From: Solirubrobacteraceae bacterium
Lineage (GTDB): Bacteria; Actinomycetota; Thermoleophilia; Solirubrobacterales; Solirubrobacteraceae
Direction of reading: 5' to 3'
DNA length: 38,074 nucleotides
Assembly (NCBI GenBank): GCA_017882455.1
Contig: JADGPL010000028.1
Location: 1-38,074, forward strand
Shown here: piece after piece, positions 34,678 through 35,846 of the stretch
Layout: every line of letters starts with the position of its first letter
How positions within the stretch are numbered: the stretch's first letter is position 1
Made by a program: the position numbers and the translations under genes
The notes under the pieces: model-generated
What the model was told of the DNA's origin: nothing
What the model saw: only the letters and a program-made list of their open reading frames with translations
The model's database searches: none

Positions 34678-35367
34678 TCACGCCGGGGCGAGCAGCAGCT
34701 CCGGTCCCTCCTCGACGCCGGCCTTGTTGACCTTGGGGTTGGCGGGTCGCGCAGAGAGCCGCTCTGTGGGGAGCGTCCCGCACAGGGCCAGCGCTTCCCG
34801 GGCGCCGAGCGCGGGATCGAGCCAGGCCCGCTGGGCCTCGGTGTCGGCGAGGATCACGGGCATGCGGTCGTGGATCGGCGCTGCGATGCGGTTGGGGGCG
34901 GCGTCGCAGGTGAGCAGGGTGACGCTCGCGATCCACTCGCCCTCGATCTTGGCGGGCGTCCACAGCGCGGCGAAGGCGAACGGGACGCCGCCGTCGAGCT
35001 GGAAGAAGAACGGCTGGCGGGGCTCTGAGCGCTTCTCGGGCTTCAGCCACTCGAAGTAGCCGTCGGCGATCTGCAGGGCGCGGCGCGAGGACTTGGGGAT
35101 CAGGTCGCGGAAGGCCGGCTTGGTGGCGACGGTCTCCATCCGCGCGTTGATCATCTTGGCGCCGACCTTGAGATCGTTGGCCCAGTGGGGAACGAGGCCC
35201 CAGCGCAGCATCCGCGCCTCGGGCTCGCCCTTTGCCGCCACGATCGCGAGCACCTGTTCGGTGGGCGCGATGTTGAAGCGCCGCGTGCCCTCGGCGCTTT
35301 CGATCGGGACCCGGAAGCGCTCGTTCAGTTCTTCGGGCCCGGCGGTGTTGGTGTAGCGGCCACACAT
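34678..35367 (-). CDS. SRAP-family abasic-site protein (YedK/HMCES-like)
   Basis: A 229-residue SOS-response-associated peptidase family protein. After Met removal C2 is the residue that forms a thiazolidine crosslink with abasic sites in single-stranded DNA; N74 in INARMET, E106 in GYFEW and H166 in IHDRMPV complete the conserved active site. It shields abasic sites at replication forks. TATCCT (35376-35381 on this strand) lies 8 bases before the ATG. The gene is divergent from the LexA-boxed gene, 110 bases from the box, so both could be SOS-controlled. Confidence 0.93.
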   Translation of the reverse strand: MCGRYTNTAGPEELNERFRVPIESAEGTRRFNIAPTEQVLAIVAAKGEPEARMLRWGLVPHWANDLKVGAKMINARMETVATKPAFRDLIPKSSRRALQIADGYFEWLKPEKRSEPRQPFFFQLDGGVPFAFAALWTPAKIEGEWIASVTLLTCDAAPNRIAAPIHDRMPVILADTEAQRAWLDPALGAREALALCGTLPTERLSARPANPKVNKAGVEEGPELLLAPA

Positions 35368-35477
35368 GGGCCCTAAGGATATGAGGGCCGCCGGAGGCGG
35401 TCCGGATCGGCCCCAGGCGCCCGCAGATCACGGTCTGCCAGACGGCAGAGTGAGCACGTGAGCGGCCCGTGAAAGTG

Positions 35478-35491
35478 CGAACATATGTTCG
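35478..35491. promoter_or_regulatory. Perfect LexA (SOS) box
   Basis: CGAACATATGTTCG matches the actinobacterial/Bacillus LexA consensus CGAAC-N4-GTTCG at every position and is a complete 14-base palindrome. It ends one base before the ATG at 35493, where bound LexA would block transcription of that gene; it could also influence the divergent SRAP gene. Confidence 0.85.
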
Positions 35492-35492
35492 T

Positions 35493-35846
35493 ATGGCCAG
35501 GCCCTACCGTCCCGTCCGCGAGCTCGAAGCCCACCTGGAACGCGGCGAGCTGCAATTCGCGCTCGCGCTCGCCAGGGCACTTGCGGTCGAACGCGAGCGT
35601 CCGCTGGACCTCGCGGTGACGATCCGCTTCCTGCCGCTGATCGCGGCCGAGCGGCCGGAGGACTTCGACGTGTGGGCGCTGCGCTGGCTCGAGCGCTGGT
35701 GCGGGGAGCTGCGCAGACGCGCGAGCATCGATGACGCCGTCGATGTGGCGCAGGGTCTGGCCGAGATCCCGATCGACCCCGAGCGCGCTTTGGCGGTGAT
35801 CGAGGCGATCTGCGCCAGTCACCGCGGGCGGCTCAGCGAGCCGTGA
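35493..35846 (+). CDS. Probable SOS-regulated protein of unknown function
   Basis: A 117-residue, mostly helical protein with no family I recognise. It is rich in Arg, Glu and Ala, has a central RWLERWCGELRRR segment with a single Cys, and no membrane or signal segment, so it is probably cytoplasmic. The ATG at 35493 begins one base after a perfect LexA box. An in-frame GTG at 35469 would place the box inside the gene and is unlikely. Its position next to an SRAP gene suggests a part in DNA-damage handling; that is an inference from regulation and context only. Codon bias supports it as coding. Confidence 0.72.
   Translation: MARPYRPVRELEAHLERGELQFALALARALAVERERPLDLAVTIRFLPLIAAERPEDFDVWALRWLERWCGELRRRASIDDAVDVAQGLAEIPIDPERALAVIEAICASHRGRLSEP

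What the first reader, a model, noticed from the sequence alone, without database searches (positions are those of the whole stretch)
35478..35846. Unknown 117-residue gene with a perfect LexA box beside an SRAP gene
CGAACATATGTTCG abuts the start codon of a helical protein with no family I recognise, and the divergent gene is an SRAP abasic-site protector. A damage-inducible gene of unknown function next to a known repair gene is a good candidate for a new SOS component.
Basis: partly seen in the sequence, partly recalled or inferred. Interest (0 to 1): 0.66.

Follow-up and report, generated by a model that had tools for sequence, protein, structure and literature searches.

The report
New SOS gene family in Thermoleophilia
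This small gene of unknown function carries the bacterium's DNA-damage control switch (a LexA box) directly at its start codon, and most of its relatives across a whole class of soil bacteria keep that switch, so it is very probably an undescribed part of the DNA-damage (SOS) response; what the protein does is still unknown.

Summary
A perfect palindrome, CGAACATATGTTCG (35478-35491), ends one base before the ATG of a 117-aa ORF (35493-35846), divergent from an SRAP gene. It is the organism's LexA operator: its lexA and recA carry boxes, and 30 of 30 lexA genes sampled across the class have one.

Of 98 distinct homologues found by protein alone, 85 have the box in the searched start region, against 0.2 expected. 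In about 72 the start codon lies within -2 to +6 nt of the box end. The boxless homologues lie mostly in one other family (f7). The family is confined in my samples to one class (Thermoleophilia) and matches no curated protein family.

The SRAP neighbour is only locally conserved: four genomes of the same genus, one as an apparent operon. 30 of 30 SRAP genes surveyed elsewhere in the family have no box. Six homologues sit next to DNA ligase D instead.

Best reading: a LexA-repressed, probably leaderless gene for a small all-helical (perhaps TPR-like) protein made during SOS. Regulation is well supported by sequence; the molecular function is a guess.

The parts
35478..35491 (+). LexA operator CGAACATATGTTCG, ending 1 nt before the start codon
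   Evidence: same 14-mer at imuB-like and DUF5131 genes in this genome; present in 85 of 98 homologues
35475..35484 (+). GTG + CGAACAT: putative extended -10 element (TGC-GAACAT) overlapping the left half of the operator
   Evidence: TG before the box in 74/83 homologues vs 11/41 lexA boxes; T at box position 7 in 80/83 vs 9/41; assignment as a promoter is inference
35493..35846 (+). 117-aa all-helical protein of unknown family (the finding)
   Evidence: dN/dS about 0.23 against the 73%-identical relative L018, 1.06 in a shifted frame; no Pfam/NCBIfam/PHROGs/PADLOC match
34678..35367 (-). SRAP (SOS-response-associated, abasic-site) protein gene, divergent; may share the operator in this lineage
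   Evidence: PF02586 3.5e-58; adjacency kept in L018/G358, G078 and G362 only

Best explanation
The ORF is an SOS-regulon gene. In undamaged cells LexA sits on CGAACATATGTTCG, which overlaps a probable extended -10 element and the transcription and translation start, and blocks RNA polymerase. When RecA on single-stranded DNA triggers LexA self-cleavage, the gene is transcribed, probably as a leaderless mRNA beginning at or within a few bases of the start codon. The product is a small soluble protein of about six helices, perhaps TPR-like, with a conserved Ala..Arg-Trp..Arg...Glu helix. I think it most likely works as a protein-binding adaptor or inhibitor in damage tolerance. Shown: box, its conservation, and the family. 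Inferred: repression, leaderlessness, fold, function.
For: Box and LexA identity: the lexA gene has CGAACACATGTTCG upstream and recA has GAACAGTTGTTC; 30/30 lexA genes sampled across the class have a GAACN4GTTC box. Conservation: 85/98 homologues have the box against 0.2 expected; the reading frame of the box relative to the gene varies, so selection is on DNA. Negative control: 0/30 SRAP promoters. Architecture: start codon -2 to +6 nt from the box end in about 72 genes; asymmetric extra conservation of TG and T. Same box and layout at the ImuB-like polymerase of this genome. Context: SRAP in four genomes, LigD_Prim-Pol in six loci, one Y-family polymerase. Purifying selection. Fold: six helices, pLDDT 61; weak TPR-like and HEAT-like hints.
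Against: No expression or binding data. Ten homologues in family f7 lack the box and several share another upstream element, so SOS control is not universal. The structure model is low-confidence and no structural match is significant. Most homologues have no repair neighbour.
Confidence: 0.6

Rival explanations
1. SOS checkpoint: the protein is a soluble, class-specific cell-division (or replication) inhibitor, working like SulA or YneA but unrelated in sequence.
For: Consensus operator identical to the one at imuB, as expected of a tightly repressed gene whose product is harmful when constitutive; small, single-gene, lineage-specific and multi-copy in some genomes, as known SOS division inhibitors are lineage-specific (general knowledge).
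Against: Neighbours, where recurrent, are repair genes (SRAP, LigD), not division genes. No similarity to known inhibitors in Pfam/NCBIfam.
Confidence: 0.25
2. Direct partner of lesion-processing proteins: it recruits or modulates SRAP, the ImuB/DnaE2 mutasome or LigD.
For: SRAP next to it in two arrangements within one genus, including an apparent operon in G362 (about 21 bp gap) and beside a different paralogue in G078; LigD beside it in six loci; one downstream Y-family polymerase.
Against: Adjacency is confined to a few genera; SRAP is present but distant in the others; LigD cases are from two genera and may be one event.
Confidence: 0.3
3. The operator serves the divergent SRAP gene and the ORF is incidental or not a gene.
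For: SRAP is known as an SOS-associated protein and its ATG lies about 110 bp from the box.
Against: 0/30 SRAP genes elsewhere have a box; the box follows the ORF family wherever it goes; dN/dS 0.23 in frame.
Confidence: 0.02
4. The box is a chance palindrome and the gene is not in the SOS regulon.
For: One GAACN4GTTC in 38 kb is not rare in shuffles (20 of 100); boxes of this loose form are only about 1.8 times commoner than the reversed control pattern in this genome (44 vs 25).
Against: 85/98 homologues vs 0.2 expected; the exact 14-mer occurs at only four places in the genome, next to SOS-type genes or this family.
Confidence: 0.02
5. It is a RecX-like regulator of RecA (small, helical, SOS-linked).
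For: Size, helices, LexA control; no RecX match found in this genome.
Against: RecX is found separately in many genomes that also carry this family, e.g. G005, G027, G101, G111; no RecX match among 83 members.
Confidence: 0.05

Closest known systems
LexA (SOS) regulon of Actinomycetota, e.g. Streptomyces venezuelae (PMC9380542: tCGAAC-N4-GNNCGa)
   Same: Operator sequence and position near the start; same repressor family present, with boxes at lexA and recA.
   Different: This gene family is not among the Pfam/NCBIfam-known SOS genes and was not found outside the class in a phylum sample.
ImuB-like Y-family polymerase gene of the same genome
   Same: Identical 14-mer, with TG just before it and the start codon just after it.
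   Different: Encodes a polymerase-family protein; no protein similarity.
SRAP/YedK/HMCES abasic-site proteins
   Same: Genomic neighbour in four genomes of the genus.
   Different: Unrelated protein; SRAP promoters elsewhere lack the box.
TPR / HEAT-like small helical repeats
   Same: Predicted helical hairpins; among the best Foldseek TM values are small TPR domains; HEAT_2 weak in 7/83 members.
   Different: No significant hit (best E 0.79); model pLDDT only 61.

Membership tests
LexA (SOS) regulon | LexA-type operator overlapping the promoter/start | tested here: met
   Perfect box 1 nt before ATG
LexA (SOS) regulon | Organism encodes LexA and uses this motif | tested here: met
   lexA found, box upstream of lexA and recA; 30/30 sampled lexA genes in the class boxed
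LexA (SOS) regulon | Operator conserved upstream of homologues | tested here: met
   85/98 homologues; exceptions mostly in family f7
LexA (SOS) regulon | LexA binding and induction by DNA damage | not testable with these tools
   Needs EMSA/ChIP and expression data
TPR-like proteins | Recognisable TPR sequence repeats | tested here: not met
   Only weak TPR matches in single members (best E 0.0087)
TPR-like proteins | TPR fold | tested here: inconclusive
   Six helices, pLDDT 61, no significant Foldseek match
RecX | RecX profile match | tested here: not met
   None of 83 members; RecX coexists in genomes carrying the family
Anti-phage defence or phage protein family | PADLOC or PHROGs match | tested here: not met
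   (one stray HEAT-ARM match in one member); no relative in viral contigs

The most novel reading that the evidence does not exclude
A class-specific SOS effector family: a leaderless, LexA-gated small helical protein that carries out a damage checkpoint or abasic-site/translesion step in Thermoleophilia by a mechanism unrelated to any known SOS protein.
Probability: 0.35. Interest if true: 0.75.

Novelty: new member of a known kind. Interest (0 to 1): 0.6.

Why it matters
It adds a conserved, testable family to the SOS regulon of a large, hardly studied class of soil bacteria; I found no paper in the held library on the LexA regulon of Thermoleophilia. The operator fused to the start codon gives a clean prediction (leaderless mRNA, tight repression) and a way to find SOS genes in these genomes.

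Tried and rejected
PDB sequence search with the profile: best E 0.14, chance. Viral contigs: no relative. Reading the conserved RTG before the box as the start codon: rejected, because it is out of frame with the gene in many members. TTGAC at a fixed place before the box as a normal -35: rejected, spacing does not fit a start codon at the box end. Systematic neighbour analysis: only LigD and SRAP recur among repair genes.

Full report
What is there. CGAACATATGTTCG lies at 35478-35491 and the ATG of a 117-aa ORF at 35493 (stop ends 35846). On the other strand SRAP (PF02586, 3.5e-58) starts at 35367. The protein has no match in Pfam or NCBIfam. The window is contig C8 of a 3.3-Mb assembly; its nearest named relative is a Solirubrobacterales MAG contig, class Thermoleophilia.

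Is the box a LexA box here? The genome's lexA gene (C41:2901) has CGAACACATGTTCG about 40 bp upstream of its start; recA (C2:19679-20464, minus) has GAACAGTTGTTC upstream. The exact 14-mer of the finding also stands at an ImuB-like Y-family polymerase (PF00817), a DUF5131 gene (PF07505) and a paralogue of the ORF on C6. Across the class, 30 of 30 sampled lexA genes have a GAACN4GTTC box upstream. The published Streptomyces venezuelae motif is tCGAAC-N4-GNNCGa (PMC9380542).

Is it conserved with the gene? Homologues were collected by protein similarity only. A profile finds the family in 114 of 399 genomes of the class (probably a lower bound, since only 12 candidates per genome were scored) and essentially nowhere else in a phylum sample of 396 genomes: only two marginal, partial matches outside the class. 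Of 98 distinct, near-full-length homologues, 85 have a perfect GAACN4GTTC in the searched start region (about 165 bp; tree groups); 0.2 would be expected from the density of the pattern in this genome. In about 72 of them the start codon lies -2 to +6 nt from the box end. The frame of the box relative to the gene differs between members, so the DNA and not a peptide is conserved. Negative control: 0 of 30 SRAP genes in the same family of bacteria have a box within 300 bp. The exceptions are informative: 10 of the 13 boxless rows belong to family f7; several share a different upstream element (TAGACT ... CCCCAGCGGC), and they cluster on the tree with boxed f7 members, so the box has probably been lost or gained more than once there. 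The tree rests on few columns and is poorly resolved.

Promoter architecture. Anchored on the box, 83 upstream regions show extra conservation on one side only: TG just before the box (74/83) and T at the seventh box position (80/83), much more than in lexA boxes (11/41 and 9/41; Fisher p about 4e-12 and 4e-18; sequences are related, so these p values overstate). My reading, which is inference, is an extended -10 element TGC-GAACAT laid over the left half-site, which puts the predicted transcription start at the last base of the box or just after it: a leaderless mRNA whose promoter LexA covers completely. A TTGAC at offset -12 in 17 of 83 is not explained by this.

Is it a gene? Against L018 (73% identity) dN/dS is about 0.23 (0.172/0.756) and about 1.06 in a shifted frame. 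Some genomes have two or three boxed copies.

Context. In the same genus SRAP is adjacent in this genome, in L018 (identical to G358 over the 900 bp compared), beside a different paralogue in G078, and downstream on the same strand with a gap of about 21 bp in G362. In other genera SRAP is 82-102 kb away in G005, G101, G111, G138, G144 and G387. LigD_Prim-Pol is the neighbour in six loci and a Y-family polymerase in one. Most members have no repair neighbour.

Fold and function. A two-sequence AlphaFold model has six helices with pLDDT 61; Foldseek finds nothing significant, small TPR domains being among the best TM values; 7 of 83 members touch HEAT_2 weakly. No phage or defence family matches. 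RecX exists separately in several genomes that hold the family. I therefore commit to a LexA-repressed small helical adaptor or inhibitor used in SOS, with a lesion-processing partner slightly favoured over a division checkpoint, and hold the regulatory part at about 0.9 and the molecular function at about 0.3.

Novelty. The regulation is of a known kind; the family appears undescribed in Pfam, NCBIfam and the papers searched (open-access papers only).

Noticed in passing
G000:C20:23971 (L099:2768-3988, minus): ImuB-like Y-family polymerase gene with the identical LexA box and the same box-then-start layout.
   Followed up: partly
G000:C39:20231 (L100): DUF5131 gene beside a perfect LexA box; another likely SOS gene.
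   Followed up: no
G000:C9:87136 (L103) and G000:C43:44215 (L104): LexA-type boxes about 77 bp upstream of dnaB and about 111 bp upstream of an EPSP-synthase-family (MurA-like) gene.
   Followed up: no
Box-anchored upstream regions of homologues, offset -12: TTGAC at one fixed offset in 17 of 83 members, spacing not fitting a normal -35 with the observed start codons.
   Followed up: partly
f7 homologues, e.g. L126, L133, L157, L176: Boxless members share an upstream element TAGACT/TAGAGT and CCCCAGCGGC-like sequence, suggesting a different control.
   Followed up: partly
L004 (G125) and L170 (G078:C56): Copies that look frameshifted, by decay or assembly error; L059 (G078) has a degenerate, box-like sequence at its start.
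   Followed up: no
G000:C21:15752 (L101:3754): Perfect box CGAACATACGTTCG at the start of a short minus-strand ORF upstream of a probable HTH regulator.
   Followed up: no
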